A stretch of DNA of 64,000 nucleotides from Pseudomonas cavernicola. GTDB taxonomy: Bacteria; Pseudomonadota; Gammaproteobacteria; Pseudomonadales; Pseudomonadaceae. A model generated the notes under the pieces. The model did not search any database. It was not told where the DNA came from and saw nothing but the letters and a program-made list of their open reading frames with translations. How positions within the stretch are numbered: position 1 is the first letter of the stretch; each line of letters opens with the position of its first letter. A program made the translations under genes and the position numbers. Below, piece by piece: positions 28,103-43,353 of this stretch. The stretch is from contig NZ_QYUR01000002.1 of assembly GCF_003596405.1 (NCBI RefSeq), positions 636,501-700,500 of the forward strand. Direction: 5' to 3'.

Positions 28103-29983
28103 ATGAAATCAAAACTCTTGGCTAACTGGAAAGGCAAACTGCAAGCGGGCACGTGGGGGATATCCATCCAGGCGAGTGGCTGGAAACCCCTCTCGCCCGC
28201 CCCATTGGACGAAGCCGACGGCGCCGGCCGGCGCTCCTTCCTGAAGCTCGGCGCAGCCGCGATGGCGGCGCCGCTCCTGCTGCGGGCGCGTATCAGCACG
28301 GCCGGGGACGATGATGATGACGCAAGCCCGCCGGTGTTCCCCCCCAGCCCGCCGACCAAGCCGTGGCAGGAGAGGCTACCCGACGCGATCACGCCACTCG
28401 CCCCGCTCGACCAGCTCAACCCGCTAACCCCGGCCCCCAGCGTGACGGCGAATACTGCGGGCGAAGAAGAGTGCGGCCGGGGCGCGCACCAGCGCCATGA
28501 CGAACTCCTTGACGCGGTTGGCGTGACACAGACTGTTTACGCGCTGAATGCCGTGGAGCGGCCCGATTGGCAGTTCCATCCGGACTATCCGAAACAGCCG
28601 GTCTGGGTCTTCGAAAGCGACAACCCGGATAAGAGCCAATTCAGTCCGGTGTTCTTCGCCCGTTATGGCCAGCCCATCCTCTGCCGCTTCCGCAATCGGC
28701 TGCCGCAGAATCACACCGGCTTCGGCTCGCCCGAGATCTCCGTGCACCTGCACAATCTGCATGCGCCATCGGAGAGCGATGGCTTCCCCGGCGACTACTT
28801 CAGCCCGACCAAGGCCGGGCCGACCCTGAGCGCGCCGGGGAAATGGAAAGACCACTTCTACCCCAACATCTATGCCGGCTACGACCAGCAGAAAACCCCC
28901 CTCGGCGATCCGAACGAGGCCCTCGGCACGCTGTGGTTTCACGACCACACCCTGGACTTCACCGCGCCGAACAACGTCCGCGGCTTGTTCGGCTTTTACC
29001 TGTTGTTCGACAACCTCGACTCGGGCGACGAGGGCCCGCAAAGCAGCGGGCTGCGGCTGCCGAGCCATCCCTACGATTACACCCTGAGCTTTGGCGATCG
29101 GCGCTTCGACGCCAACGGCCGGCTGTTCTACGACCAGTTCAATCCCGAGGGGGTGCTCGGCGACAAGGTGATAGTCAATGGCAAGATCGAGCCGGTGTTG
29201 CGCGTCGCCAAACGCAAGTATCGCCTGCGCCTGCTGAATATCGGCCCGAGCCGTAATTACGAGCTGTATCTGGCGCGGGCCAACGGCGTCGTGCAGACCT
29301 TCACCTACATCGCCAACGACGGCAACCTGTTGCCGGCGCCGCTGCTGAACCAGGCCAGGGTGCGCATCGGCGTGGCCGAACGCGCGGATATCGTCGTGGA
29401 CTTTTCCAGGTATCCGATCGGCACCGAGCTGTACATCGTCAACCGCCTCGAGCAGATCACTACGCGCAAGCCTGGAGCCGTAAAGGCGCCGGGCACCCAA
29501 CTGCTGAAGATCATCGTCGACCGCACCGCGGCGGATGTCAGCGTGGTGCCGAGCGCGCTTCGCCCGCTGCCGCCGCTACCCACTGCTGCAGAAATCGCGG
29601 CATTTCCGGTTCGCCGCTGGGTGTTTAACCGCAGTGGTGGCTTGTGGACGATTAACGATCAGCTGGTCGACGTGCAAACCCCGCGCGCCCAGATCCGCCA
29701 AGGCGAGTACGAGGTATGGGAGCTGGTGAATATCGACAACGGCTGGATCCACCCGATCCACATCCACTTCGAGGAGGGACGCATCCTCAGCCGGAATTTT
29801 GAGGGGAAAAACGTCCCGATCCCGGCACACGAGCAAGGCCGCAAGGACGTCTTCATGCTCCGCGGACCCGAGACCATTCGGGTGCTCTTGCGCTTCCGCG
29901 ACTTCAAAGGGAAATACGTCATGCACTGTCACAACCTGATCCACGAGGATCACGCGATGATGCTGCGCTTCGACATCGTCTGA
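28103..29983 (+). CDS. Multicopper oxidase MCO1, putative Tat substrate
   Basis: A 626-residue three-cupredoxin oxidase of the CotA/bilirubin-oxidase-like type. Copper-ligand motifs are all present: HLH (215-217), HDH (280-282), HPIHIH (550-555) and HCHNLIHEDHAMM (608-620), the last with Cys609 and axial Met619 of the type 1 site. The twin-arginine signal GRRSFLKLGAAAMAAPLLL starts near residue 43, after an unusually long 40-residue leader; a Shine-Dalgarno (AAGGAGAAG) precedes ATG 28103. No Met-rich copper-resistance segment is seen. It is followed by its SCO partner after 40 bp. It should reduce O2 while oxidising an unknown substrate outside the cytoplasm. Confidence 0.85.
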   Translation: MKSKLLANWKGKLQAGTWGISIQASGWKPLSPAPLDEADGAGRRSFLKLGAAAMAAPLLLRARISTAGDDDDDASPPVFPPSPPTKPWQERLPDAITPLAPLDQLNPLTPAPSVTANTAGEEECGRGAHQRHDELLDAVGVTQTVYALNAVERPDWQFHPDYPKQPVWVFESDNPDKSQFSPVFFARYGQPILCRFRNRLPQNHTGFGSPEISVHLHNLHAPSESDGFPGDYFSPTKAGPTLSAPGKWKDHFYPNIYAGYDQQKTPLGDPNEALGTLWFHDHTLDFTAPNNVRGLFGFYLLFDNLDSGDEGPQSSGLRLPSHPYDYTLSFGDRRFDANGRLFYDQFNPEGVLGDKVIVNGKIEPVLRVAKRKYRLRLLNIGPSRNYELYLARANGVVQTFTYIANDGNLLPAPLLNQARVRIGVAERADIVVDFSRYPIGTELYIVNRLEQITTRKPGAVKAPGTQLLKIIVDRTAADVSVVPSALRPLPPLPTAAEIAAFPVRRWVFNRSGGLWTINDQLVDVQTPRAQIRQGEYEVWELVNIDNGWIHPIHIHFEEGRILSRNFEGKNVPIPAHEQGRKDVFMLRGPETIRVLLRFRDFKGKYVMHCHNLIHEDHAMMLRFDIV

Positions 29984-30023
29984 TGTGCGCGCCAACCCCA
30001 TCCGTGACGCTGGAGGTATGCAG

Positions 30024-30653
30024 ATGAACACTCGCAGAAATCTCTTGGTCGGCCTCGGCGCCGCCGCGCTCGGCGTTGTCGCCTGGCGCACCGGCAGCGA
30101 CACCCGCCGGCTCGAAGCTCAGCCGGCTGGCGCCGATACAACTGGCGCCAGCTATTTCCCGAACATCACGCTCTACACCCACGAAGGCAAACCGGTGAAG
30201 GTCTACGACGACCTGATTCGCGGCAAAGTGGTCGCCTTCAACATGATGTACACACTCTGTGGCGGCTTTTGCCCGACCATGACGGCGAACCTGCGGGGCG
30301 TGCAGAAGCTGTTGGGCGAGCGCGCCGGGCGTGACGTCTTCATGTACTCGATCTCACTGCAGCCGGAGCTGGATACGCCACAGATCCTCAAGGCCTACGC
30401 CGAGCAGCATCACGTCGGCCCAGGCTGGTCGTTCTTGACCGGTGCGCCCGCCGACATCGAACTGCTGCGCCGGCGCCTCGGCTTCTACGATGTCGATCCG
30501 CTGGTCGACGGCAACAAAGCGAGCCATACCGGCATGGTCCGGATCGGTAATGACCGCAACAACCGCTGGACCATGGCTGCGGCGCGCTCAGTTCCCGAAC
30601 AGATCTTTGCCGCCATCAATCATGTCGACAATAGCGTCGTGCATACGGCGTAG
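30024..30653 (+). CDS. SCO1/SenC-family protein, pair 1
   Basis: A 209-residue thioredoxin-fold copper chaperone. The copper site consists of Cys79 and Cys83 (CGGFC) and His168 in GNKASHTG. The N-terminus MNTRRNLLVGLGAAALGVVA combines a twin arginine with a hydrophobic stretch, so it may be Tat-exported and stay anchored. ATG 30024 is chosen because the same MNTRR start is conserved in all three paralogues, with GGAGG 7 bp upstream; the frame is open to 29985. It probably loads copper into MCO1 or maintains its thiols. Confidence 0.85.
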   Translation: MNTRRNLLVGLGAAALGVVAWRTGSDTRRLEAQPAGADTTGASYFPNITLYTHEGKPVKVYDDLIRGKVVAFNMMYTLCGGFCPTMTANLRGVQKLLGERAGRDVFMYSISLQPELDTPQILKAYAEQHHVGPGWSFLTGAPADIELLRRRLGFYDVDPLVDGNKASHTGMVRIGNDRNNRWTMAAARSVPEQIFAAINHVDNSVVHTA

Positions 30654-30785
30654 GGTGGGTTAGCCGTAGGCGTAACCCACCACCCGAACCGCACGCGGCG
30701 CTGCTCTGCGGCACCGTTGTGGGCGGTGTCTGTTGCTGACACCGCTGGTGGGTTACGCCGCTACGCGACTAACCCACCCTACACT
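30650..30785. repeat. Palindromic repeat, GTAGGGTGGGTTAGCC family, after SCO1
   Basis: CGTAGGGTGGGTTAGCCGTA with GGCGTAACCCACC at the left pairs with GGTGGGTTACGCCGCTACGC and GACTAACCCACCCTACA at the right. A related copy follows the second SCO gene at 33612-33723. It could act as a terminator or mRNA 3' stabiliser. Confidence 0.75.
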
Positions 30786-31033
30786 TGATGACTTAAGGCG
30801 GCTCGGGATCAGTGCGTAATTAAATCCGACGAAAGCGACGGGTTAGCGTCGCTTTCAACTTTACGATTCCTAGGTCTTGGACTTTAGTCTAATCATTGAC
30901 GTTTTGAGCGGCATCGAAGAACGAGCCGCGGGACAGTCACCGTCAAGCTAGCGCTGGGGAGGGCAACCGCCATGAACCAAGCATTCATGGGGAGTTGGCA
31001 GCGCAAATTGGCAGCTGGGGGTAGGTATGCCCC
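30654..31033. other. Gap between pair 1 and pair 2
   Basis: 380 bp: the palindromic repeat, then an AT-richer segment (30790-30900) that may hold a promoter for the second pair. A short upstream ORF starts at 30972 (separate entry). Confidence 0.5.
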
Positions 31034-31037
31034 ATGA
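30972..31037 (+). CDS. 21-codon leader ORF overlapping the MCO2 start
   Basis: It encodes MNQAFMGSWQRKLAAGGRYA-P. It has a better ribosome binding site (GGGGAGGG) than the MCO2 gene itself, and its TGA stop lies in the ATGA that starts MCO2. The peptide resembles the extra N-terminal leader of MCO1 (LLANWKGKLQAGTWG), so it is probably the ancestral leader thrown out of frame. Translational coupling to MCO2 is an inference. Confidence 0.45.
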   Translation: MNQAFMGSWQRKLAAGGRYAP

Positions 31038-32944
31038 AAAGCAAGGCTTGGAAATCCAGGTCGAAGCGTTCCAAGGATTTACCCGACGGCGAAGCAAGAC
31101 GCTCATTCCTCAAATTATCCGCCGCGGCAATGGCGGCGCCGCTGCTCCTGCGAGCACGCAACAGCGCTGCCGTGGAGTGGGTCACCACGCCCCAGCCGAT
31201 CTTCCCCCCCAGCCCGACCACCAGGCCCTGGCTGGAGGAACTGCCCAGGCAGATCGTGCCGATCGCGCCGCTCGACCCACTAATAACCCCGCTAACCCCG
31301 AGTCCCACTGTGGACGCAAATATCGCAGGCGGCGAAGCCGGGCGAGCGCCGCACCAGCGTTACGCCGAGCTCATCGCAAGGTTCGGAGCGCCGCAACTCT
31401 ATGAGTTAAGTGCCGTGGAGAATCCCGCATGGGTGACCCATCCGGACCTGCCCAACCAGACCGTCTGGGCTTACCGCAGCGCCACACCGAACGCGACCGT
31501 GCCCGCCACCATCTTCGCGCGTTATGGCAAGCCGATCCTCTGCCGCATCCACAACGAACTGCCGCAGGATCACGTCGGCTTCGGCAGCCCGGAGATCTCC
31601 ACCCACCTGCACAATCTGCATACGCCCTCGGAGAGCGACGGCTTCCCGGGCGATTTCTACAGCCCGAATCTGGCCGGCCCGACCCTAACTGCGCCAGGGG
31701 AATTCAAGGACCACTTCTACCCCAACATCTATGCCGGTTACGACGAGCAGAAAACCCCTCTCGGCGATCCGAACGAGGCCCTGGGCACTCTGTTCTTCCA
31801 TGACCACACCCTGGATTTCACCGCGCCGAACGTCTACCGAGGCCTGGTGGGGTTTTACCTGTTGTTCGACGACCTCGACTCGGGCGACGAACGCGATCCC
31901 AACGGGCTGCGGCTGCCGAGCCATCCCTACGACTACCCGCTGGCCTTCGGCGACCGGCGATTCACCCCGCTCCCGGACGGCCAGCTGTTCTTCGACCAGC
32001 TCCATGCCGAAGGCGTGCTCGGCGACAAGGTGGTGGTCAACGGCAAGATCGAACCGGTGTTGCGCGTGGATCGCCGCAAATATCGCCTGCGCCTGCTCAA
32101 CAGCGGGACCAGCCGCTTCTACGAGTTCTATCTGGTCACCCCGGGCAACGTCGTGCAGCGCTTCGACTACATTGCCAACGACGGCAACCTGTTGCCGGAA
32201 ACGCTGCGCAACCAGACCAAGGTGCGGCTCGGCGTGGCCGAGCGCGGCGACATAGTGGTGGACTTTTCCAAGTATCAGATCGGCACCGAGCTCTACCTGG
32301 TCAACCGGATCCGCCAGCTCAGCACCCGTGGGCCCAAGGACGTGAAGGCGCCAGGCACCCGCGTGCTCAAGTTCATCGTCGACCGCGACCCGCCGGAGCA
32401 GGACATGAGCCAGGTGCCGGACAAGCTGCGGGACTTGCCGGAGCTACCCACCGATGAGGAAATCGATAAATTACCGGTGCGGCGCTGGGAGTTCGATCGC
32501 AAGAATGGCCTGTGGGTGGTTAACCAGCAGCTGTTCGACGTGGACAACCCGCGGGCCAAGATCAAGCAAGGCGACGCCGAGGTCTGGGAATTGGTGGATG
32601 ACGCCGGCGGCTGGTCCCATCCCATCCACATCCACTTCGAGGAAGGCATCATCCTCAGCAAGACCGTCGATGAGATAGAGGTGCCAGTGCCGCTGCACGA
32701 GCGCGGCCGCAAGGACGTCTTCGTGCTGGAAAAAACCATGGCCATGCGGGTGCTGCTGCGCTTCCGCGATTTCAAAGGCAAGTACGTCATGCACTGTCAC
32801 AACGTGATCCATGAAGATCACGCGATGATGGTGCGCTGGGACATCGTGGGCGAGGGCGAGGAGGACGTGGACGTGGGCGAGGACGTGGACGTGGACGTGG
32901 ACGTGGACGTGGACAATGACGATGACGATGACGATGACGACTGA
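31034..32944 (+). CDS. Multicopper oxidase MCO2 with Asp-rich tail
   Basis: A 636-residue paralogue of MCO1. Copper motifs: HLH near 191-193, FHDHTLDFTAPN, HPIHIHFEEG, and HCHNVIHEDHAMM starting at residue 587. The twin-arginine signal RRSFLKLSAAAMAAPLLL starts near residue 22. The C-terminus carries about 30 extra residues of Val-Asp and then Asp only, encoded by GACGTG and GATGAC tandem units; neither MCO1 nor MCO3 has this. ATG 31034 is coupled to the preceding leader ORF. It is followed by SCO2 after 42 bp. Confidence 0.85.
   Translation: MKSKAWKSRSKRSKDLPDGEARRSFLKLSAAAMAAPLLLRARNSAAVEWVTTPQPIFPPSPTTRPWLEELPRQIVPIAPLDPLITPLTPSPTVDANIAGGEAGRAPHQRYAELIARFGAPQLYELSAVENPAWVTHPDLPNQTVWAYRSATPNATVPATIFARYGKPILCRIHNELPQDHVGFGSPEISTHLHNLHTPSESDGFPGDFYSPNLAGPTLTAPGEFKDHFYPNIYAGYDEQKTPLGDPNEALGTLFFHDHTLDFTAPNVYRGLVGFYLLFDDLDSGDERDPNGLRLPSHPYDYPLAFGDRRFTPLPDGQLFFDQLHAEGVLGDKVVVNGKIEPVLRVDRRKYRLRLLNSGTSRFYEFYLVTPGNVVQRFDYIANDGNLLPETLRNQTKVRLGVAERGDIVVDFSKYQIGTELYLVNRIRQLSTRGPKDVKAPGTRVLKFIVDRDPPEQDMSQVPDKLRDLPELPTDEEIDKLPVRRWEFDRKNGLWVVNQQLFDVDNPRAKIKQGDAEVWELVDDAGGWSHPIHIHFEEGIILSKTVDEIEVPVPLHERGRKDVFVLEKTMAMRVLLRFRDFKGKYVMHCHNVIHEDHAMMVRWDIVGEGEEDVDVGEDVDVDVDVDVDNDDDDDDDD
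32849..32943 (+). repeat. Hexanucleotide/trinucleotide repeat encoding acidic tail
   Basis: Runs of GGCGAG, GAGGACGTG, GACGTG (about six units) and GATGAC/GACGAT (about four units) within the 3' end of MCO2. All unit lengths are multiples of three, so copy changes alter tail length but not frame. Confidence 0.8.
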
Positions 32945-32986
32945 ATGCTGCGCGGCAACGACGCTCATGAGCCTGGAGGAATGCAG

Positions 32987-33613
32987 ATGAACACTCGCAG
33001 AGATCTATTGGCCGGCATCGGCGCCCTCGGCGCCGCCGCGCTCGGCTGGGCTGCCTGGCGCGAGGTCGGCGAAGCACCGCAACGCCTTCGCAGCGCGGCC
33101 GCCGCTGGCGGTCGCTTGCCGAACACGCTGCTCTATACCCACGAAGGCAAGGCGGTCAGCTTCTACGACGACTTGATCCGCGGCAAAGTGGTCGCCATCA
33201 ACATGATGTATGCATCCTGCGCGGGGATTTGCCCGACCGCGACGGCGAACCTGCGGCTGGTGCAGCAGCTGTTGGGCCAACGCCTGGGGCGCGACGTCTT
33301 CATGTACTCGATCACCCTGCAGCCCGAGCTGGACACGCCGCAGAACCTGAGGGAATACGTCGAGTTGCACCATATCGAGCCGGGCTGGTTGTTCTTGACC
33401 GGCGCGCCCGCCAACATCGAGCAGTTGCGCTATAGCCTCGGCTTCTACGACCCCGACCCGCTGGTCGACGGCAACAAGGCGTCCCACTCCGGCATGCTGC
33501 GCGTCGGCAACGACGCCTACCAGCGCTGGACCATGGCGCCCGCACTGGCCACGCCCAAGCAGATCCTCGCCACCATCAATCATGTGGACAGATCCAGGGT
33601 GCACAGCGCTTAG
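32987..33613 (+). CDS. SCO1/SenC-family protein, pair 2
   Basis: A 208-residue paralogue of SCO1 with Cys motif CAGIC and distal His in GNKASHSG. The N-terminal MNTRRDLLAGIGALGAAALG again combines twin arginine and a hydrophobic core. ATG 32987 has TGGAGGA upstream and is the start conserved among the three copies. It would serve MCO2, whose stop is 42 bp upstream. Confidence 0.85.
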   Translation: MNTRRDLLAGIGALGAAALGWAAWREVGEAPQRLRSAAAAGGRLPNTLLYTHEGKAVSFYDDLIRGKVVAINMMYASCAGICPTATANLRLVQQLLGQRLGRDVFMYSITLQPELDTPQNLREYVELHHIEPGWLFLTGAPANIEQLRYSLGFYDPDPLVDGNKASHSGMLRVGNDAYQRWTMAPALATPKQILATINHVDRSRVHSA

Positions 33614-33723
33614 GGCTGTAGGGTGGGTTAGCCGTAGGCGTAACCCACCAGCCGGCCTGCACGCGGCGGTGCTTGACGGCACCACTGGTGGGTTATGCCG
33701 CTACGCGACTAACCCACCCTACA
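33612..33723. repeat. Palindromic repeat, GTAGGGTGGGTTAGCC family, after SCO2
   Basis: TGTAGGGTGGGTTAGCCGTA and GGCGTAACCCACC pair with GGTGGGTTATGCCGCTACGC and GACTAACCCACCCTACA. It is the same element as at 30650-30785 with a shorter centre. It lies between the convergent SCO2 and cytochrome c genes. Confidence 0.75.
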
Positions 33724-33781
33724 AAAGGCTACGGCCCGATTCAACATTCAACTGGTACATAGCCTTGAAAGCGAGCGGTGG

Positions 33782-34699
33782 CTAGTCCAGGGCGCGCGGT
33801 TTGATGCGCTCTGCAACCACACTGCCGTCAGCCGCGATGCGACCACGCACTTGCACATAGTCCCCCGCGACCGGGGCGTTATCCACGCGGGTGGCCGAGT
33901 CGACGATCAGCCTCAACCCATCCAGCGTCCAGCCGGCACCGAGCCTGCCGTGCAAACGCACCCGCGCGCCGCTCGGGCTGGGCGCGGCATTGCCTTGCGC
34001 ATCCCGCGCGCCCTGGTTGATCCAGGCGCTGATCAAGGCGATTTCCGCATCATCCAGATACGGCGGTCCATCGTGTGGCATGCGCGGCAGCGCCTGCCCG
34101 CGAATACGCCGCACCAGCTCGCTGGCCTCGGCAAAACCCGGCACCACCCGCGCGCGCTCGGCGCGGGAAACCGTCGCCTGGTAGGAGGTCAGCACATAGC
34201 CCTCGGGCGCCCGCCCCTCGGCGTGGCATTTGGCACAGCGCTGGGCAAAGATCGGCGCAACACGGGCATAGCTGACCGGTTCACCCGGCTGCGCTCGCAG
34301 CTCCGCACGGGCCACGGCAGCCGCCGGAGGTGGCGCACCGTGCGGCAACCCGGCAGCCACCCAGCGCTCGAACAGGTCGATCTCCTGCTCAGTGAGAAAC
34401 GGTGGCCCGGTCATCGGCATGCGCGGCAGGCTGAGGCCTTTGAGCCGGCGGATCAGCTCACTCTCGGCCGGATTACCGGCCTTGACCACCGGGCCGTTTT
34501 GGCTGCCGGCCAGCAGGTTGTCGAGACTGTCGAGCTTGAGTCCCAGCGGCGCCGCTGGCCCGCTATGGCAGAGCACGCAGCGCGTTTGCACAAGCGCCGC
34601 GAGATCCGCATAGGTCACTTCCTCGGCGTGGCCCGTGGGCGCAGCGAGCAACACCGGCAGCAGGTACAACGACGTCATTCGGTACAGGTTCTGGTTCAT
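33782..34699 (-). CDS. Exported diheme-type cytochrome c with C-terminal DUF5666-like domain
   Basis: 305 residues: a signal peptide (MTSLYLLPVLLAAPTGHA), then two similar units of about 100 residues. Each has one heme motif (CVLCH and CAKCH) and a distal Met block (LPRMPMTGPPFL and LPRMPHDGPPYL). The two units resemble planctomycete-type (PSC1) cytochrome domains. The last 70 residues, from VRLHGRLGAGWTLDG to DGSVVAERIKPRALD, look like a DUF5666/OB-fold unit. ATG 34699 is chosen for GAGGCGGG upstream; 34678 is an alternative. It is convergent with pair 2 and could donate or accept electrons for the oxidases (inference). Confidence 0.7.
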   Translation of the reverse strand: MNQNLYRMTSLYLLPVLLAAPTGHAEEVTYADLAALVQTRCVLCHSGPAAPLGLKLDSLDNLLAGSQNGPVVKAGNPAESELIRRLKGLSLPRMPMTGPPFLTEQEIDLFERWVAAGLPHGAPPPAAAVARAELRAQPGEPVSYARVAPIFAQRCAKCHAEGRAPEGYVLTSYQATVSRAERARVVPGFAEASELVRRIRGQALPRMPHDGPPYLDDAEIALISAWINQGARDAQGNAAPSPSGARVRLHGRLGAGWTLDGLRLIVDSATRVDNAPVAGDYVQVRGRIAADGSVVAERIKPRALD

Positions 34700-35466
34700 C
34701 CGCACACCCGCCTCAGGCGCGCTCGCGCACTCGCAAATAACGGCTTGGCTCTTGTAGGAGCGAGCGGGCATGGCAGAAAAGCATCGCTCGCGATGCTCGC
34801 TCCCACATTCATTTCCGGGCGCTGCAAGCGAGCTACTACAAGGCCGCCAAGGTGTAGCTCTAGCGCATACGGAAAGAGAGCGTTATTCAGCAACAGCACA
34901 GCTGGCGGAGAGGCCCAGCCTCGGAGTACCTGCCATAGCCCACAGGCTTAACAGCTGATATCAATGAGCCATAACAATCTATTGAACCTCTGGCAGAACA
35001 GTTATTTGCATACTTATCAAGAACGGTTCTGATCTAAACTGGTCATCGACACCTTTAGCAACATAGTTCAGTTCCAAGGAGGATTTCGACGTTTTGCAGA
35101 GCGTTGTGTTGAATAGGCAAGGGCACGACGCCCGGTGCCAGCGTCAACACAACGACGGAGAAAATCATGGACAGCGAGCAACGCACTCGCATGCTGGCGC
35201 CGCCGCCAACCGGCGCTTTCGCGGCCTATCAGCCTACCCCCGCCCGGCAACTCCATACCGACCGTTTGTTCGGTGTCGTCAACGCCCAGAACCACTTACG
35301 ACTGAGCGCTGATAAGCGAAAGCGATTCAGAGGCGTTCGGCTGTGGGCGTTATCCCAATGCCCGATCGCCGAACGCCTGGTTCGAACACGGAGCTGACGT
35401 TTTGCCACCCTGCCAGGTGCCGGGCGGCAGTTAGCGAGGAGCAAGCCGCGTGAGAGAAGCACCGCC
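34700..35466. other. 767-bp region before pair 3
   Basis: It holds a REP element (34753-34807), an AT-rich part at 34960-35060 likely to include a promoter, and a possible small ORF at 35167-35397 (76 codons) after ACGGAGAAAATC. That ORF has no family resemblance and low coding character, so I do not call it a gene. Confidence 0.5.
34753..34807. repeat. Classical Pseudomonas REP element
   Basis: TGTAGGAGCGAGC is inverted as GCTCGCTCCCACA, with GCATCGCTCGCGATGC in the centre. This is the well-known REP consensus of fluorescent pseudomonads. Confidence 0.85.
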
Positions 35467-37332
35467 ATGAAACCTACAGACTTGAGACACAGGAAAGGTC
35501 AACTGCCGAACCCGCAAGACTCAGCCGATGTCGAGGCCCGGCGCTCGTTCCTTAAGCTCGGCGCTGCCGCCATGCTGACGCCGCTACTGCTGAACGGACG
35601 CAGCGCTGTCGCCGATGATGATCCAGAGCCCCCGGTATTCCCCCCGAGCCCGCCCACCACGCCGTGGCTGGTGACACTGCCCAACGCGATCACGCCGCTC
35701 CAAGCGGTCGCCGCCCTGAACCCGAGCCCCACCGTGGCGGCGAATACTGCGAACGGCGAAGCGGGGCGAGCGCCGCACCAACGTTTCGCCGAGCTCACCG
35801 GAGTGCTCGGCGCACCGCTACTGTACGAGCTGAAGGCCAAGGAGCGCCCCGATTGGGTGTTCCATCCGGCCTATCCGCCGCAGCGCATCTGGGGTTACGA
35901 AGGCACCACGCCGGGTGCGACCAGCCCGGGCCCGACGATCTTCGCGCGCTATGGCCGGCCGATCCTCTGCCGCATACGCAACCAACTGCCGCAGAATCAT
36001 GTCGGTTTCGGCACGCCGGAGATCTCCACCCACCTGCACAACTTGCATACGCCGTCGGAGAGCGATGGCTTCGCGGGCGACTACTACAGTGCGAACAAGG
36101 CGGGCCCGACCCTGACCGCGCCTGGGGCATTCAAAGACCACTTCTACCCGAACATCTATGCCGGCTACGACCAGCTGCAGAACCATATCGGCGATCCGAA
36201 CGAGGCCCTGGGCACGCTGTTCTACCATGACCACACCATGGACTTCACTTCGCCGAACATAGTGCGCGGCTTGTTCGGTTTCTACTTTATTTTCGACCCG
36301 CTCGACTCGGGCAACGAGCGTGATCCAACCCCCGGCGCCCTGCGGCTGCCGAGCCATCCTTACGACTACCCGTTGAGCTTTGCGGATAAGCGCTTCGACG
36401 CCAACGGCATCCTGTTCTACGACCAGGTCAACCCCGATGGGGTGCTCGGCGACAAGGTATGCGTAAACGGTTACATCGAACCGGTGCTCAGGGTGGCGGC
36501 CCGCAAGTATCGCTTCCGCCTGCTCAATGTCGGGCCCAGCCGTTTCTATGGCCTGTCCCTGGTGACGGCGAGCAATGTGCGGCAGACCTTCACCTACATC
36601 GCCAACGACGGCAACCTGTTGCCGGCGCCGCTGCTGAACCAGACCCTGGTCAGCTTTTCCGTGGCGGAGCGCGCCGACATAGTGGTGGACTTTTCCCGCT
36701 ACCCGATCGGTACCGAACTCTATCTGATCAACCGGCTCCGTCAGGACAACACCCGCGGACCTGATGGAACTGGAATCGGGAGTAATGGCCCGCGCATCCT
36801 CAAGTTCATCGTCGACCGCTTCCCGCCACAGCAGGACCTGAGCCAGGTACCGGCTGCGCTGCGCCCGCTGCCGCCACTCAGTCTCGCCGAAATCGCCGCC
36901 GCGCGAGTTCGCCGCTGGGATTTCGACCACGACCGCGGGGTGTGGGTGATTAACGACCGGCTGTTCAACGTGAATCGCGCCAGCGCCCTGATCCCCCAAG
37001 GCGCCGCCGAGGTGTGGGAACTGATCAATGACGACGACGGCTGGCAACACCCGATCCATATCCACTTCGAGGAGGGGCGCATCATCAGCAAGACCAGGGA
37101 GGGGAAAAACGTGCCGGTGCCGCTGCACGAACGGGGGCGCAAGGACGTTTACTTGCTCGGCGAGGATGAGACCGTGCGGGTATTCATCCGCTTCCGCGAC
37201 TTCAATGGGAAGTACCTCATGCACTGCCACAACCTGATCCACGAGGACCACGCGATGATGCTGCGCTTTGACATCGTGGCGCAAAGCGGCAACCAGGGCC
37301 CCGGCGGCGGAGGCAGCAGCGGCACCGGCTAA
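35467..37332 (+). CDS. Multicopper oxidase MCO3, putative Tat substrate
   Basis: A 621-residue paralogue of MCO1 and MCO2. Copper motifs: HLH at 189-191, YHDHTMDFTSPN, HPIHIHFEEG, and HCHNLIHEDHAMM starting at 586. The twin-arginine signal RRSFLKLGAAAMLTPLLL starts near residue 25. The C-terminus ends in a Gly/Ser-rich tail (GPGGGGSSGTG) in place of the acidic tail of MCO2. In the second copper motif Tyr precedes HDH where the others have Phe. It is followed by SCO3 after 40 bp. Confidence 0.85.
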   Translation: MKPTDLRHRKGQLPNPQDSADVEARRSFLKLGAAAMLTPLLLNGRSAVADDDPEPPVFPPSPPTTPWLVTLPNAITPLQAVAALNPSPTVAANTANGEAGRAPHQRFAELTGVLGAPLLYELKAKERPDWVFHPAYPPQRIWGYEGTTPGATSPGPTIFARYGRPILCRIRNQLPQNHVGFGTPEISTHLHNLHTPSESDGFAGDYYSANKAGPTLTAPGAFKDHFYPNIYAGYDQLQNHIGDPNEALGTLFYHDHTMDFTSPNIVRGLFGFYFIFDPLDSGNERDPTPGALRLPSHPYDYPLSFADKRFDANGILFYDQVNPDGVLGDKVCVNGYIEPVLRVAARKYRFRLLNVGPSRFYGLSLVTASNVRQTFTYIANDGNLLPAPLLNQTLVSFSVAERADIVVDFSRYPIGTELYLINRLRQDNTRGPDGTGIGSNGPRILKFIVDRFPPQQDLSQVPAALRPLPPLSLAEIAAARVRRWDFDHDRGVWVINDRLFNVNRASALIPQGAAEVWELINDDDGWQHPIHIHFEEGRIISKTREGKNVPVPLHERGRKDVYLLGEDETVRVFIRFRDFNGKYLMHCHNLIHEDHAMMLRFDIVAQSGNQGPGGGGSSGTG

Positions 37333-37372
37333 GTGAGGCGCCAGCAACGCTCACAGGCCAGGAGGATTGCAA

Positions 37373-37993
37373 ATGAACACTCGCAGAAATCTCTTAGTCG
37401 GCATGAGCGCGGCCGCGCTCGGCGTGCTCGCCTGGCGCGGGGCCAGCGAAGAACCGCAGCGCGCTCGTAGCGGCGCTGCGGACGGCGGCTACTTCCCGAA
37501 CACGCCGCTGTATACCCACGAAGGCAAGGCAGTCAGGTTCTATGATGATCTGGTCCGCGGCAAAGTGGTCGCCATCAACATGATGTACACCTCGTGCACA
37601 GGGATTTGCCCAACCACGACGGCGAACCTGCGGCTGGTGCAGAAGCTGTTGGGTGAGCGCGTGGGCCGCGACGTCTTCATGTATTCGATCACCCTGCAGC
37701 CCGAGGTGGACACGCCGCAGATCCTGAAGGAATACGTCGAGAGGCACCACATCGAGCCCGGCTGGTTGTTCTTGACAGGCGAGCCCGCCGACATCGAGCA
37801 ACTGCGCTTTAGCCTCGGCTTCTACAGTCCCGACCCGCTGGTCGACGGCAATAAGGCCAACCATTCCGGCATTCTGCGCATCGGCAACGACGCCTACGAG
37901 CGCTGGACCATGGCGCCCGCGCTGGCTGAGCCGGAGCAGATCCTGGCCACTATCAATCATGTGGACAGATCCGTCGTGCATACGGCGGCGTAG
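37373..37993 (+). CDS. SCO1/SenC-family protein, pair 3
   Basis: A 206-residue paralogue with CTGIC and distal His in GNKANHSG. It starts MNTRRNLLVGMSAAALGVLA at ATG 37373. The upstream in-frame codon here is TTG (37367), which shows that the internal ATG is the conserved start. The Shine-Dalgarno is AGGAGG. Partner of MCO3. Confidence 0.85.
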   Translation: MNTRRNLLVGMSAAALGVLAWRGASEEPQRARSGAADGGYFPNTPLYTHEGKAVRFYDDLVRGKVVAINMMYTSCTGICPTTTANLRLVQKLLGERVGRDVFMYSITLQPEVDTPQILKEYVERHHIEPGWLFLTGEPADIEQLRFSLGFYSPDPLVDGNKANHSGILRIGNDAYERWTMAPALAEPEQILATINHVDRSVVHTAA

Positions 37994-38533: not shown

Positions 38534-39028
38534 CTAGAAGGAAGGGGTGGAGAAGTTGGCGATAGCCGCCCTAAGCTGTCCGTTGTCGACATCGAAGGTC
38601 AGGGTGAAGGACGCGAGCACCGGGCGCGCCGATTCGGTCGCGTTGGCGTTCACCGGGGTGATGGGGAAAGTGAGCTCTACCAGATCACTAGGCCGGAGCG
38701 GCCGGACCACCGTGTTCTCGCCATGCGCGAAGTACCTTGCCCCTGTCGATTGCCCGACGCCGATCACGTTGAGGAAATCGATGGAAAGGATGACACCGGG
38801 CGGGCCGTCAAAGTCGGGATCGGTGAACATGGTGCTCCTGATGCGTGCCTGCCCCTTAAGGGCAATGTTTTCCGTAGCCCCGTCCAACGTGCCCTCGATC
38901 GGGACGATGAGCTGGGATGTCTGGCGCGCTGGTGAGGGAGCGGCAGAGGCGCTCTCCCAGATCAGGCTGCCCACGATCCCGGCGAGCGCCAGGAGGGCAG
39001 ACGTGAATCTCGGGTGACCGGTGTTCAT
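38534..39028 (-). CDS. Secreted protein of unknown function in the MCO4 operon
   Basis: 164 residues with a signal peptide (residues 1-29, cleavage after ASA). The mature part appears beta-rich, with no cysteines: PIEGTLDGATENIALKGQAR, then VILSIDFLNVIGVGQSTG and LASFTLTFDVDNGQLRAAIA. I recognise no family. It is the last gene of the operon, 29 bp after the SCO::cytochrome gene, with GAGGAGG before ATG 39028. A role with the oxidase, as a substrate-binding or accessory protein, is only inferred from operon position. Confidence 0.75.
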   Translation of the reverse strand: MNTGHPRFTSALLALAGIVGSLIWESASAAPSPARQTSQLIVPIEGTLDGATENIALKGQARIRSTMFTDPDFDGPPGVILSIDFLNVIGVGQSTGARYFAHGENTVVRPLRPSDLVELTFPITPVNANATESARPVLASFTLTFDVDNGQLRAAIANFSTPSF

Positions 39029-39057: not shown

Positions 39058-40059
39058 CTATGAGCCCGGAGCGTCGCTCATGGGCTGGGGCATCATCGGG
39101 GGCGTCGAGTCTTTCCCTTCCGGATGCTCGTGGGCTGCGCTTTGCGCCTCGAGATACTGGATCAGAGCCTCCACATCGCCATCGCCCAGGTGCAGGTTGG
39201 GCATCCGCACCGCGTTGTATCTGGCGTACAGGTCCATGGCGATCGGGTCCTGCTCCGCCAGCATCTCGTCCGGCGTCTTGATGAACCGCCTGAGCCACGC
39301 CTGGTCGCGGCGGCTCGTGACACCCAGCAGGTCCGGCCCCAAGGCATCCCCTTTGCCGATGGTGTGGCAGGCGGAACATCGGCTGCGGAAGAGATAGCCC
39401 CCTGCGTCCAGCCCTTCGATCGGGGGGGCGGCCGTGTAACTTTTGCCCATGTCCTCCTGCCGATTTTGCCAACCCAGCAGGAACGTGCTGAGCTTCATGG
39501 CGAGGAAGCGTGGGTTGTCCAGAGCGGATTGCCGCATCCATTGGCCGGTCGGCTCGTTGCCGATCATGAGGCTGGAAAGGTGGCCGTCCGGGTCGTCGGC
39601 GTCCGTGCGCGACCACAACCCCAGCTTCTTCTGCACGAGGGTGATGTCTTCTTTCTTTCCGGTGAGGAACAGCCATCCGGGACCCGCGTGAAACTTCTCT
39701 GCATAGGCCTTGAGCACCGCTGGCGTATCGCGTTTGGGGTCGATGCTGATCGAGTAGAAGAAGATCTCTTTCCCCACCCGGTCGCCCAGCAACCGCTGCA
39801 CCTGAGCCAGCTTTGCGGTGCTGAGAGGGCACTTGTCCGGGCAGTGGGTGTAGATCACGTTGATCACCACAGCCTTGCCCTTGAGCAGATCGTCATAGAA
39901 GCGGACCCTCTTCCCGTCCTGCGTGACCAGGGGGACATTGGGAAAATAGTCTGCCCCCCATCGCTCCGCGCTAAGGGCGGGGCCGATCCACAGAAGAGCC
40001 CCGGCGCCGGCGAGCCATACGCAGGCTGCCGTGATGCATGCCCACTGGGGCCTTTGCAT
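39058..40059 (-). CDS. SCO::cytochrome c fusion protein
   Basis: 333 residues, exported or anchored by the N-terminal hydrophobic stretch (about 8-30). Residues 35-200 are a SCO domain with Cys73 and Cys77 (CPDKC) and a candidate His at 160 (DDPDGHLSS). Residues 215-300 are a class I cytochrome c with CSACH (Cys228, Cys231, His232) and probable axial Met286 (RMPNLH). ATG 40059 follows AAAGGAG. It sits between MCO4 and the secreted protein and is the likely copper and electron partner of MCO4. Its C-terminal tail is His/Met/Pro-rich (HEHPEGK, PPMMPQPMS). Confidence 0.85.
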   Translation of the reverse strand: MQRPQWACITAACVWLAGAGALLWIGPALSAERWGADYFPNVPLVTQDGKRVRFYDDLLKGKAVVINVIYTHCPDKCPLSTAKLAQVQRLLGDRVGKEIFFYSISIDPKRDTPAVLKAYAEKFHAGPGWLFLTGKKEDITLVQKKLGLWSRTDADDPDGHLSSLMIGNEPTGQWMRQSALDNPRFLAMKLSTFLLGWQNRQEDMGKSYTAAPPIEGLDAGGYLFRSRCSACHTIGKGDALGPDLLGVTSRRDQAWLRRFIKTPDEMLAEQDPIAMDLYARYNAVRMPNLHLGDGDVEALIQYLEAQSAAHEHPEGKDSTPPMMPQPMSDAPGS

Positions 40060-40126
40060 GGTACCCGCTCCTTTCAGTTCCAATTGACACCTCGCCCGGC
40101 GCCGATGCGCCGACGTCGCAGACGCA

Positions 40127-42361
40127 TTACCGAAACGCGGTCGAGAGAATGTCGGTCGGGTCCACGAACGTCACACCCTGGGGCGTCGGCATCGGGGTCG
40201 GCAGCGGCCTCAGGAACGCGCCGCCCGCGTCGTTGATCTCCCAGCGCAACAGCATGGCGTTGTCCTCGTGGGTGGTGTTGTGGCAGTGCTCCATGAACAT
40301 CCCGCCAAAGTCCCGGAACTGCATGGTGATGGTGACACTGCCACCCGGACGCAGCCGATAGACATCCTTGCGGCCGCGCTCCCACGCCGGGACGTTGCTC
40401 AGCTTGCCGTCGCGGGCGAGGATCTGGCCCTCTTCGAAGTGGATGTGAATCGGATGATCCCAGCCGCCGCCACCGTTTCTCAGGGTCCAGATCTCACGAG
40501 TGCCGAAGCGCGGCGCGGCCGAAATGCGCCCGAAGTCGGCGGCGAGCATGTCTCTCCCGTTGGTCTTGATGCCCCAGGGACCGAAGAACGACGAGACGGG
40601 GTCGCTCGTGGTCTGCTTGGCACCCCGCCCGAACTCGAAGATTCGCTTCGCTGCCACGGGAATCCTGGACAGATCCGGGTTTGGGCAGAGGACGGCAGGC
40701 ACTCGGCTCACATCGGGCCTGGCGGGATCCCGGACGATCCGGAACTCGAAAAACTTCCCGACGCAGGGATCGGACGAAATCCCCGAAAGGGCCTCCCGCA
40801 GCGAGAGGTCTTCATGTGGCTTCCTGCCGTTCTCGTGCTCGGCGAGGTTCACCATCCAGACCTTGTCGCCCACCCGATAGCGGGAAAAGTCGATCACGAT
40901 GTCGTAGCGCTCCGCGATGCCCAGCTCGTCGAGTTCGGTGAGGACCACCGGGCTCGGCAGCAGGTTCCCGTCGTTGGCGATCATGATCAAGGGTGAAGCA
41001 TCGCTCAAGGCGATCTTGAAGAACCGGGCGACGGCCCCGTTGAGGATGCGGAAGCGGTATTTGCGCCGCTCGACCTCGAAGTAGGGCTTGTAGACGAGGT
41101 TCACGGTCATCACATCGCCCAGGAACCCGTCGAAGTCGAAGATATTCATCGCCAGCTGCCCGTCCCCGTCCCAGGCTTTGTCCGCCAGCATGAGGTTCAC
41201 GTCGAAGTCGAGGTTGCCAAACGACTTGTCCCTGCCGCTGGGCAATCTGAGATTCACCCCGTCGTTGATCTCCTCGTTGCCGCGATCGAGGCTGCTGTAG
41301 ATGTTGAACATCCCGGCGTTGCCCTTGTACACGTTCTGGGCGGTGAAACTGAACATGTGGTCGTGGAACCAGTGGGTGCTCATGGTCTCGCGGAAGTCGC
41401 CGGCGAGCTTGTCGATGCCACCGGCGTCATTAGGGCTGCCGCAGCGGGAATCCGTGGCCTCCAGGTTGAAGCTGAAGTAGCCGCCATGGCAGATCGGGTA
41501 GTGGTAGTCGTAGAACTGGCCGGGGAAGAAAAAGGCCCCGGTGAAGCCGTCGTTCTCCGCCCCATGGTGCCCGTTATGCTCATGGGTGCTCAGCGTGTGT
41601 ATCCCGAATCCGCCGTTTTGGGTCGGGTCGACCGGCAGGCGGTTGTGATGGCGGAAGAGGATGGACTCGTGGTAGCGACCGATCAGCAGCTTGGGTGGCA
41701 AGGTCCCGTTGAACGTCCAGAGCGCGAGTGGCCCTTGGTCCGGCAGGCCCGGATGGAAGCGCGGGCGCAAGGCCGCCGTCGGGTCGATGCCGGAATTGAG
41801 GCTCGATGGGACGCCGGGATTGTAGAGGGTGTTGGCCTTGGCACCCTCCTGCGTGACCTCCACGGCCACGGTGGGAAAGAAATCGTGCCACTGCTGGTGG
41901 GCCCAGATCGGTCCCGGAGGGCGGCCCTCGATGGGGCCGGTGCGCCCGCCCAGCACGGCGGGCACGGGCTGCTGGGTGGTGTTCGCCTGCTCTGTCGGGT
42001 CGAACCCCGGACGGCCAGGAAACGCCGGGAGTGGATTCATCACGCCCTTGCCGGGCGTATACGCTTTGCGCGGCAGGACATCGAAGCGAGGCATGGGCTG
42101 GGTGAAGGCCTGGACGCCGAACAGCGGGCTCGGCGGCAACCCGGTCGGGACATTGAAATCATCGGCATACGCACTGCTAGTGAAGGGACTCAGGCCGTGG
42201 ATCGGGACCAACAGTCCCCCTGTCGTGACGAGGCCCCACTTGATGAAGTCGCGTCGTGTAACCTCTCCCTGGGAGTAAGCCTTTACTAACTCCGCAAGAT
42301 TCCGTCTCGCGTTCTCGGCTTCTCTGAGTCGAGCTTTGGATACATTCGGTGGAAGGTACAT
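40127..42361 (-). CDS. Large multicopper oxidase MCO4, putative Tat substrate
   Basis: 744 residues, a divergent three-domain oxidase. The twin-arginine signal is TRRDFIKWGLVTTGGLLVP near residue 36, after a charged leader. Copper motifs: STHEHNGHH, THWFHDHMFSF, HPIHIHFEEG and HCHNTTHEDNAML (HCHx3Hx4M, so the type 1 axial ligand is Met). Compared with MCO1-3 it has about 100 extra residues in the first cupredoxin region. ATG 42361 has AAGGAGGTG upstream; the in-frame GTG at 42367 lies in that site. It leads a three-gene operon. The substrate is unknown. Confidence 0.85.
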   Translation of the reverse strand: MYLPPNVSKARLREAENARRNLAELVKAYSQGEVTRRDFIKWGLVTTGGLLVPIHGLSPFTSSAYADDFNVPTGLPPSPLFGVQAFTQPMPRFDVLPRKAYTPGKGVMNPLPAFPGRPGFDPTEQANTTQQPVPAVLGGRTGPIEGRPPGPIWAHQQWHDFFPTVAVEVTQEGAKANTLYNPGVPSSLNSGIDPTAALRPRFHPGLPDQGPLALWTFNGTLPPKLLIGRYHESILFRHHNRLPVDPTQNGGFGIHTLSTHEHNGHHGAENDGFTGAFFFPGQFYDYHYPICHGGYFSFNLEATDSRCGSPNDAGGIDKLAGDFRETMSTHWFHDHMFSFTAQNVYKGNAGMFNIYSSLDRGNEEINDGVNLRLPSGRDKSFGNLDFDVNLMLADKAWDGDGQLAMNIFDFDGFLGDVMTVNLVYKPYFEVERRKYRFRILNGAVARFFKIALSDASPLIMIANDGNLLPSPVVLTELDELGIAERYDIVIDFSRYRVGDKVWMVNLAEHENGRKPHEDLSLREALSGISSDPCVGKFFEFRIVRDPARPDVSRVPAVLCPNPDLSRIPVAAKRIFEFGRGAKQTTSDPVSSFFGPWGIKTNGRDMLAADFGRISAAPRFGTREIWTLRNGGGGWDHPIHIHFEEGQILARDGKLSNVPAWERGRKDVYRLRPGGSVTITMQFRDFGGMFMEHCHNTTHEDNAMLLRWEINDAGGAFLRPLPTPMPTPQGVTFVDPTDILSTAFR

Positions 42362-42645
42362 TCGCACCTCCTTGCTCGCAGTATCCCCCGACGTACTAAT
42401 TCCCCTGCTGCCTGAAAGATGCAGGGCCTCAGCGTGTCACTTCGGACCCACTATCGAGCCGAAAATACAGCGCTCTCGCGGTGGCCTCCGCTATACAAGC
42501 ACCGCACCCCAGTCACCTATGTGTCTTTGGGGCACAAGTGGAGCAGAATCTCACCTTCACCGCCTATATATCCCGTTTAACGGTTAAATTGTGGCGGATG
42601 CCTTCTCTAAGCTTAGCTGAGCAAAAATCGAACTAAAGGGGGGAA

Positions 42646-43353
42646 CTAAAGGGGTCGTAAAAATTTATTTTTAAGCGGCGGCCGCCACCGATTACATTGC
42701 CCAACCACGCGACCTAAATTTCGCTCAACTGACTCACGGAAGCGCTCATTACCCAGCGGATAGTTGTGAGTCAACGCCTCACGCATGACATGCAAGGCTG
42801 AAGCCTCGAGGTGCTCCGTGAACAACTGTCGATAGGCCTGTTGCCGCTGAGAGGCATCTTCGCCCAACTGCTGATAGAGAAGATGATCCGCCACCACCCC
42901 ATTCGGCATTCCCCAGGCATGCCAGCCATAGCTTGACCAAGGATATTCCTCCGGAGCCGCAACCATGCCTGCTCGCAGGGGGTTCAGCTCGATGTAGCGA
43001 TAGCAGGTCAGCAGATTCTCGGCAGCGTTGACCAGGCTTGCTTTGTGCCGCCCCTCCCACAGCGTGCCCGTGTGCCGATGGGTTCGGTTGATGTTCAGCA
43101 CATACAGGCGTCCCACATTCTGCATCACCCGCGAAATACCCTCAGTATCCGCCGGCGTCATCAGCAGATGGACGTGATTGGTCATCAACACATAAGCATG
43201 CAGCTCCACCCGATAGCGCTTCAGCGCATCGGCCAGTGCCGCGAGGTAAAAACGGTAGTCGTCCTCATGGAAGAAACTGGCAGCGCGATTGTTTCCGCGC
43301 TGCACCACATGGGCCGGCACACCAGGCAGATACATCCGGTGTTTACGAGGCAC
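42646..43353 (-). CDS. RAYT (REP-associated tyrosine transposase), copy 1
   Basis: A 235-residue Y1/TnpA-REP family transposase. The HUH motif is NHVHLL (His60, His62), and the block CYRYIELNPLRAGM carries the probable catalytic tyrosine. It starts MPRKHRMYLPGVPAHVVQRG. The gene is enclosed by an inverted repeat whose left arm overlaps its stop codon. It lies at the boundary between the MCO island and ltaE, so it may have helped place the island. It appears intact. Confidence 0.88.
   Translation of the reverse strand: MPRKHRMYLPGVPAHVVQRGNNRAASFFHEDDYRFYLAALADALKRYRVELHAYVLMTNHVHLLMTPADTEGISRVMQNVGRLYVLNINRTHRHTGTLWEGRHKASLVNAAENLLTCYRYIELNPLRAGMVAAPEEYPWSSYGWHAWGMPNGVVADHLLYQQLGEDASQRQQAYRQLFTEHLEASALHVMREALTHNYPLGNERFRESVERNLGRVVGQCNRWRPPLKNKFLRPL

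What the first reader, a model, noticed from the sequence alone, without database searches (positions are those of the whole stretch)
28103..37993. Three tandem MCO-SCO pairs: a copper-oxidase array of unknown substrate
Three paralogous three-domain multicopper oxidases, each followed at 40-42 bp by its own SCO1/SenC chaperone, run head to tail, with a cytochrome c gene facing them. All copper ligands are intact in all three, and all three carry a twin-arginine signal RRSFLKL. SCO proteins normally serve cytochrome oxidase CuA; dedicating one to each laccase-like enzyme is unusual, and keeping three diverged copies suggests distinct substrates or conditions. I cannot tie this layout to a described system such as CopA or a manganese-oxidase cluster.
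Basis: partly seen in the sequence, partly recalled or inferred. Interest (0 to 1): 0.78.

Follow-up and report, generated by a model that had tools for sequence, protein, structure and literature searches.

The report
Tandem copper oxidase-SCO gene pairs
A Pseudomonas carries a cluster of four probably exported copper oxidases, each followed by a gene for an SCO-type copper protein; the pairing is a recurring pattern also seen beside known manganese- and iodide-oxidizing enzymes, but three of these copies belong to a branch whose substrate is unknown.

Summary
The array is real: three MCO-SCO pairs at 28103-37993 with motif-inferred copper ligands intact, RRSFLKL signals and 40-42 bp spacers.

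SCO behind MCO is common in this enzyme clan (82 of 109 related genes examined), not odd. Published precedents: mcoA-SCO and the mnxG operon (Mn(II), P. putida GB-1) and ioxA-ioxB (iodide, Iodidimonas). I recovered the Q-1 iox locus and loci with both published mcoA gene orders. MCO4 is McoA's sister; MCO1-3 form a separate clade in which I found no characterised member.

MCOs and SCOs co-vary, but not strictly: the fifth unit is a mosaic (unit 1-like front, unit 2-like back), and some loci have two MCOs and one SCO. SCOs of the MCO1-3 clade keep Cys-Cys-His (45 of 45 full-length); IoxB-type partners lost it (26 of 27).

Best reading: exported oxidases helped by SCO in maturation, amplified and reshuffled locally; Mn(II) is the likeliest single substrate, untested. 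New variant of a known kind.

The parts
28103..29983 (+). MCO1, multicopper oxidase, 626 aa, RRSFLKL signal
30024..30653 (+). SCO1, SCO1/SenC protein with CGGFC and distal His
31034..32944 (+). MCO2, 636 aa, with an Asp-rich C-terminal tail
32987..33613 (+). SCO2, with CAGIC and distal His
33782..34771 (-). Diheme cytochrome c (CxxCH at residues 65 and 179) with DUF5666 domain, between pairs 2 and 3
35467..37332 (+). MCO3, 621 aa
37373..37993 (+). SCO3, with CTGIC and distal His
38534..39028 (-). Small protein without Pfam match, with a hydrophobic N terminus and a predicted all-strand fold, third gene of the MCO4 module
39058..40083 (-). SCO4: SCO1/SenC domain fused to a cytochrome c domain
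40127..42367 (-). MCO4, 746 aa, sister of McoA-type Mn oxidases
30650..30783 (.). Repeat elements behind SCO1, repeated behind SCO2
33618..33723 (.). Second copy of those repeats, behind SCO2

Best explanation
This is a locally amplified set of exported multicopper oxidases from one clan that also holds the Mn(II) oxidase McoA and the iodide oxidase IoxA. MCO4 belongs to the McoA branch; MCO1-3 belong to a separate sister clade. The SCO behind each oxidase most likely helps its maturation, by delivering copper or keeping thiols reduced with its CxxxC and His. The mature oxidase takes electrons from a small extracellular reductant at its type 1 copper and reduces O2 to water. The diheme cytochrome c and the cytochrome c domain of SCO4 are candidate redox partners. 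The likeliest single substrate is Mn(II): about one in three for MCO1-3, about one in two for MCO4. The copies arose by duplication of whole MCO-SCO units and then exchanged parts by recombination. Shown: anatomy, family placement, conserved pairing, mosaic unit. Inferred: role of SCO, redox partners, substrate.
For: Placement: 52-row tree, MCO4 with McoA-type rows (11 rows, SH-aLRT 100), IoxA clade (11 rows, 99), MCO1-3 clade (23 rows, 96); a 109-row tree without McoA rows also gives the IoxA and MCO1-3 clades. McoA assignment by gene order: L145 and L148 match the two published mcoA contexts. Pairing: 82 of 109 MCO ORFs; 16 of 16 MCO1-3-type genes in five other Pseudomonadaceae genomes. Copper ligands: 45 of 45 full-length SCOs of the MCO1-3 clade keep C-C-H. 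Co-variation: r=0.819 over 56 pairs, above all 2000 within-genome shuffles. Mosaic fifth unit. Mn link: P. resinovorans MO-1, a strong Mn oxidizer, has 8 mcoA homologues (PMC5854784); Mn-oxidizing Pseudomonas sp. MOB-449 is named as source of a 62% MCO3 relative and an 83% MCO4 relative (Mn oxidation from the title of PMC9634551). This genome gave no McoA-type match and no twin SCOs.
Against: No functional data for any MCO1-3 relative. MCO4 is only 40-42% identical to McoA-type proteins. R. capsulatus CutO, another exported MCO, matures without SenC (PMC8456105 passages). The IoxA clade keeps an SCO-like gene without copper ligands, so the partner can do something other than carry copper by that site. 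18 of 64 MCO1-3-clade genes have no SCO called directly behind, and 3 of 5 MCO4-type genes in relatives lack the SCO-cytochrome c gene. MOB-449's carriage of these genes does not show that they oxidize Mn.
Confidence: 0.5

Rival explanations
1. An iodide-oxidase system like iox, turning iodide into I2.
For: IoxA is in the same clan and also has an SCO-like gene directly behind; MCO3 is 41% identical to IoxA of Q-1.
Against: MCO1-3 lie outside the IoxA clade. No IoxC or IoxE match in this genome (those empty answers had no positive control). The SCOs keep C-C-H, while 26 of 27 IoxB-type partners do not.
Confidence: 0.08
2. Copper detoxification: the enzymes oxidize Cu(I) in the periplasm like CueO or CopA.
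For: MCO fold and Tat signal; weak NCBIfam matches to CueO and, for MCO1, CopA.
Against: All NCBIfam scores lie far below the curated cut-offs. The genome holds other MCO genes, at C8:315631 and in C6, that score higher with Cu-oxidase_2 (not classified further). No copper-resistance genes were noticed beside the array.
Confidence: 0.1
3. Laccase-like oxidation of phenols, pigments or polymer fragments, with the copies tuned to different organics.
For: The nearest solved structures are bilirubin oxidase and CotA; purified IOX also oxidizes phenolic compounds (PMC9415286).
Against: Only 26-32% identity to those enzymes in the fold search. No aromatic-degradation gene stood out beside the array.
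Confidence: 0.25
4. The SCO is not a copper chaperone but a lasting redox or structural partner of the oxidase.
For: SCO4 and the SCOs of McoA-type genes are fused to cytochrome c. IoxB kept its place but lost the copper ligands.
Against: All 45 full-length SCOs of the MCO1-3 clade keep C-C-H, which a purely structural role would not need.
Confidence: 0.3
5. The copies are redundant and serve dosage, not distinct substrates.
For: Ligands identical; SCO2 and SCO3 are more alike than MCO2 and MCO3 and the fifth unit is a mosaic.
Against: MCO dS between copies is about 0.6, so they are not recent; MCO3 is nearer to genes of other Pseudomonas than to MCO1 or MCO2.
Confidence: 0.25

Closest known systems
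mcoA-SCO pair of Pseudomonas putida GB-1 and relatives (Mn(II) oxidase McoA)
   Same: MCO with an SCO directly behind; in L145 and L148, which match the published mcoA gene orders, the SCO has a cytochrome c domain like SCO4; MCO4 is the sister branch.
   Different: MCO4 is shorter (746 aa against 935-1140 aa for most relatives listed) and 40-42% identical; no mnxS or mnxR-type genes seen beside it. MCO1-3 are a different clade, with SCOs without cytochrome c.
mnxG operon of P. putida GB-1 (Mn oxidase)
   Same: An MCO with SCO genes in one operon.
   Different: MnxG-like ORFs are about 1950 aa, the SCOs are twins and come after another gene; no twin SCOs in this genome.
iox cluster of Iodidimonas Q-1 (iodide oxidase IoxA, with IoxB-F)
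   Same: Same clan; SCO-like gene directly behind the MCO.
   Different: IoxA clade is separate; IoxB lacks C-C-H; IoxC and IoxE follow and are not MCOs.
   Same: JM0905a and LFM046 hold several MCO1-3-type and MCO4-type modules; MO-1 has 8 mcoA homologues.
   Different: In JM0905a and LFM046 the modules that I read lie at separate places; here four lie together. MO-1's arrangement was not seen.
Bilirubin oxidase (Myrothecium) and CotA (Bacillus)
   Same: Fold and copper motifs.
   Different: 26-32% identity in the fold search; no SCO gene in front of or behind the Priestia relative L113.

Membership tests
McoA-type Mn(II) oxidase (MCO4) | Groups with McoA-type MCOs in a tree | tested here: met
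   11-row clade, SH-aLRT 100; McoA rows assigned by gene order, GB-1 sequence itself not compared
McoA-type Mn(II) oxidase (MCO4) | SCO with cytochrome c domain directly behind | tested here: met
   39058-40083; same in L145 and L148
McoA-type Mn(II) oxidase (MCO4) | Oxidizes Mn(II) | not testable with these tools
   needs assay
McoA-type Mn(II) oxidase (MCO1-3) | Groups with McoA-type MCOs in a tree | tested here: not met
   MCO1-3 lie in their own 23-row clade
iox iodide oxidase (MCO1-3) | MCO inside the IoxA clade | tested here: not met
iox iodide oxidase (MCO1-3) | IoxC and IoxE present | tested here: inconclusive
   no match in this genome, but the tool warns that an empty answer without a control shows nothing; none seen among the ORFs of the array region
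CueO, PhsA, FtsP, CopA (NCBIfam) | Score over the curated cut-off | tested here: not met
   best scores 19-152 bits against cut-offs of 479-950
SCO1/SenC | PF02630 over the gathering score | tested here: met
   60-81 bits against 22.8 for all four
SCO1/SenC | CxxxC and distal His | tested here: met
   all four window SCOs
SCO1/SenC | Delivers copper to its partner | not testable with these tools
   needs biochemistry

The most novel reading that the evidence does not exclude
MCO1-3 stand for a separate, uncharacterised oxidation system beside the Mn (McoA) and iodide (IoxA) branches, with its own substrate. The array works as a recombination reservoir in which the copper-carrying third domain and the SCO behind it travel as one block, so that new oxidase-SCO combinations arise by crossing-over between units.
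Probability: 0.3. Interest if true: 0.7.

Novelty: new variant of a known kind. Interest (0 to 1): 0.42.

Why it matters
It turns an array of unknown meaning into a testable one: a strain with several MCO-SCO modules of the McoA/IoxA clan in which the searches here found no McoA-type gene and no twin-SCO (mnxG-type) operon. If it oxidizes Mn(II), these modules are candidate new Mn oxidases; if not, the clan's substrate range is wider than known. The contrast between SCO partners that keep their copper ligands and IoxB-type partners that lost them is a natural experiment on what an SCO does for a multicopper oxidase.

Tried and rejected
My first guess, that the three MCO-SCO pairs equal ioxA-F, was dropped after reading the Q-1 locus: IoxC and IoxE are not MCOs. 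Base composition of the array (GC 0.61-0.66) is like its surroundings and says nothing on import. Promoter and terminator scans gave no more than shuffles. A response-regulator census placed the nearest match on this contig stretch near window 1309-1635, about 27 kb from the array. The fold search of the small protein gave no match at E<=0.001. 'Manganese oxidase' as a source's name for MCO4 relatives was treated as a label only. MoxA of Pedomicrobium and the GB-1 McoA sequence were not at hand. The co-variation test used 56 pairs, after leaving out SCOs under 150 aa, SCOs without CxxxCP and loci that are duplicates of others. Loci L142-L144 were not examined; L145-L152 are 8 places chosen from the 50 listed there.
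Full report
WHAT IS THERE. Each MCO has a Cu-oxidase_2 domain, RRSFLKL near the N terminus, and the motifs HxHNxH, HPIHIHFEEG and HCHNxIHEDHAM; twelve positions inferred to bind copper are identical in MCO1-3 (roles recalled from the family). The MCO3 model (mean pLDDT 86.4) matches bilirubin oxidase best in fold (E 1.6e-46), then CotA. A cytochrome c with two CxxCH motifs and a DUF5666 tail sits between pairs 2 and 3 on the other strand. From the far side a fourth module converges: MCO4, an SCO fused to a cytochrome c domain, and a small protein without Pfam match. The genome (5.6 Mb; a Pseudomonas by the names of its nearest proteins) has five SCO1/SenC matches. Four are these; the fifth scores best and lies beside an ORF that I recognise from memory as a UbiA-type prenyltransferase, so it is probably the cytochrome-oxidase SCO. 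A fifth MCO, 83% identical to MCO1, lies on contig C8, and the SCO behind it is cut short.

HOW COMMON IS THE PAIRING. The sample was found through the MCO, so this is the rate among relatives, not among all MCOs. The 27 others include second MCOs in MCO-SCO-MCO loci (L083, L085, L090, L092, L101), tandem MCOs (L055, L076, L098), three IoxA-type genes with IoxC behind (L046, L049, L052), L079 where the SCO lies in an overlapping longer ORF, L112 where it lies 570 bases on, L082 where it lies in front, and some near contig ends.

In a draw of 79 Pseudomonadaceae genomes, MCO1-3- or MCO4-type genes (over 800 bits) occur in 6: this one and 5 of 7 genomes of one other genus; in none of the 6 other genomes of the window's own genus. 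In a wider draw none of 10 others of that genus matched at E<=1e-40, with at most three candidates scored per genome. In the five other genomes, 16 of 16 MCO1-3-type genes have a CxxxC SCO behind; one of these MCO genes (L129) is in two overlapping pieces. Of 5 MCO4-type genes, 2 have the SCO-cytochrome c gene and 5 the small protein. Of 17 McoA-type genes read (9, 8 chosen), 14 have an SCO-cytochrome c gene behind; the 3 without are one tandem run in L123. Homologues of the window's cytochrome c turned up in 3 of the loci L028-L156: L081, L103, L109.

DO SUCH SCOs OCCUR ALONE? In 12 genomes (8 with MCOs of this clan, 4 without such MCOs), 36 SCO matches score 54-91 bits, all in the 8. 24 lie beside MCO1-3-, MCO4- or McoA-type genes; 12 form six twin pairs. 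I read four twins: three share an operon-like run with a 1947-1971 aa ORF carrying HCHxxxH, as published for mnxG; in the fourth (L154) I saw none. The 4 genomes have only SCOs of 128 bits or more, plus in two of them marginal 22-23 bit matches.

CLOSEST KNOWN SYSTEMS. A review gives ioxA as an MCO and ioxB, D and F as SCO1/SenC homologues, with IoxC and IoxE unclear (PMC9415286, passages). The Q-1 record itself came up as L044 and shows IoxA to IoxF in order. PMC11409713 (passages and section 8) reports an SCO1/SenC gene immediately behind mcoA in P. putida GB-1, MS-1 and DSV-1, and two SCO genes in the mnxG operon. L145 shows MCO (1131 aa) - SCO - GGDEF/EAL - phosphonate-binding - phage integrase, the GB-1 mcoA order; L148 shows kinase - MCO (949 aa) - SCO - kinase - sigma54-type regulator, the MS-1/DSV-1 order. 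I therefore take this clade as McoA; the GB-1 sequence was not compared. P. resinovorans MO-1, described as a strong Mn(II) oxidizer, has 8 mcoA homologues by BLASTP (PMC5854784, whole text); strain MOB-513 has one at 31% (PMC9765421, passages). So multi-copy MCO families of this kind are already in print as putative Mn oxidases. Other papers seen only in passages: PMC8218464, PMC5928188, PMC10556733, PMC12335899, PMC6769254, PMC8456105, PMC11930936, PMC3056050, PMC9634551 (one reference-list passage and the listing).

TREE. On 52 rows with two distant MCOs (Priestia, Paenarthrobacter) as outgroup (IQ-TREE quick, mixture model), MCO4 groups with McoA types (11 rows, SH-aLRT 100), IoxA types form an 11-row clade (99), MCO1-3 types a 23-row clade (96). 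The 109-row tree, with no McoA rows, gives IoxA (30 rows, 99) and MCO1-3 (64 rows, 97) clades. Both are quick trees and the tool warned of long branches. MCO1 and MCO5 are sisters with MCO2 next; MCO3 groups with Pseudomonas sp. 2FG (88%). The order among the large clades is open.

CO-VARIATION AND ITS LIMITS. Over 56 MCO1-3-type pairs from 34 genomes the MCO and SCO distances correlate at r=0.819; shuffling SCOs within genomes reaches at most 0.763 (0 of 2000), full shuffles at most 0.327. Linked inheritance alone can produce this. Against strict dedication, the C8 unit resembles unit 1 up to about nt 1486 (276 of 333 informative sites) and unit 2 behind it (123 of 158); 0 of 2000 shuffles fit as well. 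Its SCO fragment is 88% identical to SCO2 and 65% to SCO1. SCO2 and SCO3 agree at 99 of 186 two-against-one sites in the SCO part, against 173 of 560 in the MCO part. The break is near codon 495, where the C-terminal Cu-oxidase_2 domain begins (residue 493 in MCO1), so that domain and the SCO moved together; one crossover between tandem units explains it without selection for matching partners.

SCO LIGANDS. Aligned to SCO3, 45 of 45 full-length SCOs of the MCO1-3 clade have C-C-H, as do 3 of 3 of the MCO4-type rows and 4 of 4 others. In the IoxA clade 26 of 27 do not, with no Cys in either column; the exception is L063, the first branch of that clade. IoxB of Q-1 is among the 26. The passages that I read do not mention this; a search for IoxB and IoxD found three papers, one unrelated, and the original iox paper is not held, so I cannot say that it is new.

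SELECTION. dN/dS between MCO1, 2 and 3 is 0.40-0.42 at dS about 0.6; of nine comparisons with three other genomes, eight are lower than 0.40 and one is 0.45. This shows purifying selection, not distinct substrates.

MECHANISM. By family knowledge these enzymes take electrons at type 1 copper and reduce O2 to water. That the SCO helps maturation is an inference: R. capsulatus CutO matures without SenC, and IoxB shows that the partner can lose its copper site. Mn(II) is favoured because MCO4 is McoA's sister, because Mn oxidizers hold both types, and because McoA-type genes and twin SCOs were not found in this genome. Iodide is disfavoured; organics stay open.

VERDICT. A real array; its pairing is known in kind; the MCO1-3 branch, the four-module cluster and the mosaic unit are new in detail as far as I could see.

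Noticed in passing
L044 and 25 further IoxA-clade loci or units: The SCO-like gene behind IoxA-type MCOs lacks Cys-Cys-His in 26 of 27 cases while keeping its place, so IoxB-type proteins probably do not bind copper as SCO does.
   Followed up: partly
L014 6941-9154 (contig C8 of this genome): A fifth MCO-SCO unit, mosaic of unit 1 and unit 2, with an intact MCO and a truncated SCO.
   Followed up: yes
38534-39028: Small protein with seven predicted strands, no Pfam match and no PDB match at E<=0.001, behind 5 of 5 MCO4-type genes in relatives, also where the SCO is absent.
   Followed up: partly
32846-32941: MCO2 ends in an Asp-rich repeat tail; no other of the 109 MCOs examined has one of that kind by the script's cut-off.
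   Followed up: no
30650-30783, 33618-33723 and 42646-43353: Repeats with GTGGGTTA/TAACCCAC ends behind SCO1 and SCO2, and a Y1-type transposase gene beside MCO4; they may be REP elements and their transposase (recalled type).
   Followed up: no
L123 5179-14979: Three McoA-type MCOs in tandem without SCO between them, in another Pseudomonadaceae genome.
   Followed up: no
L038 1437-14370: Ferruginivarius sediminum carries two tandem iox-type runs, with MCOs about 70% identical to IoxA of Q-1.
   Followed up: no
MCO rows: An acidic pair follows HPxHxH (HPIHIHFEEG) in 45 of 50 clan members and in 0 of 2 outgroup rows.
   Followed up: no
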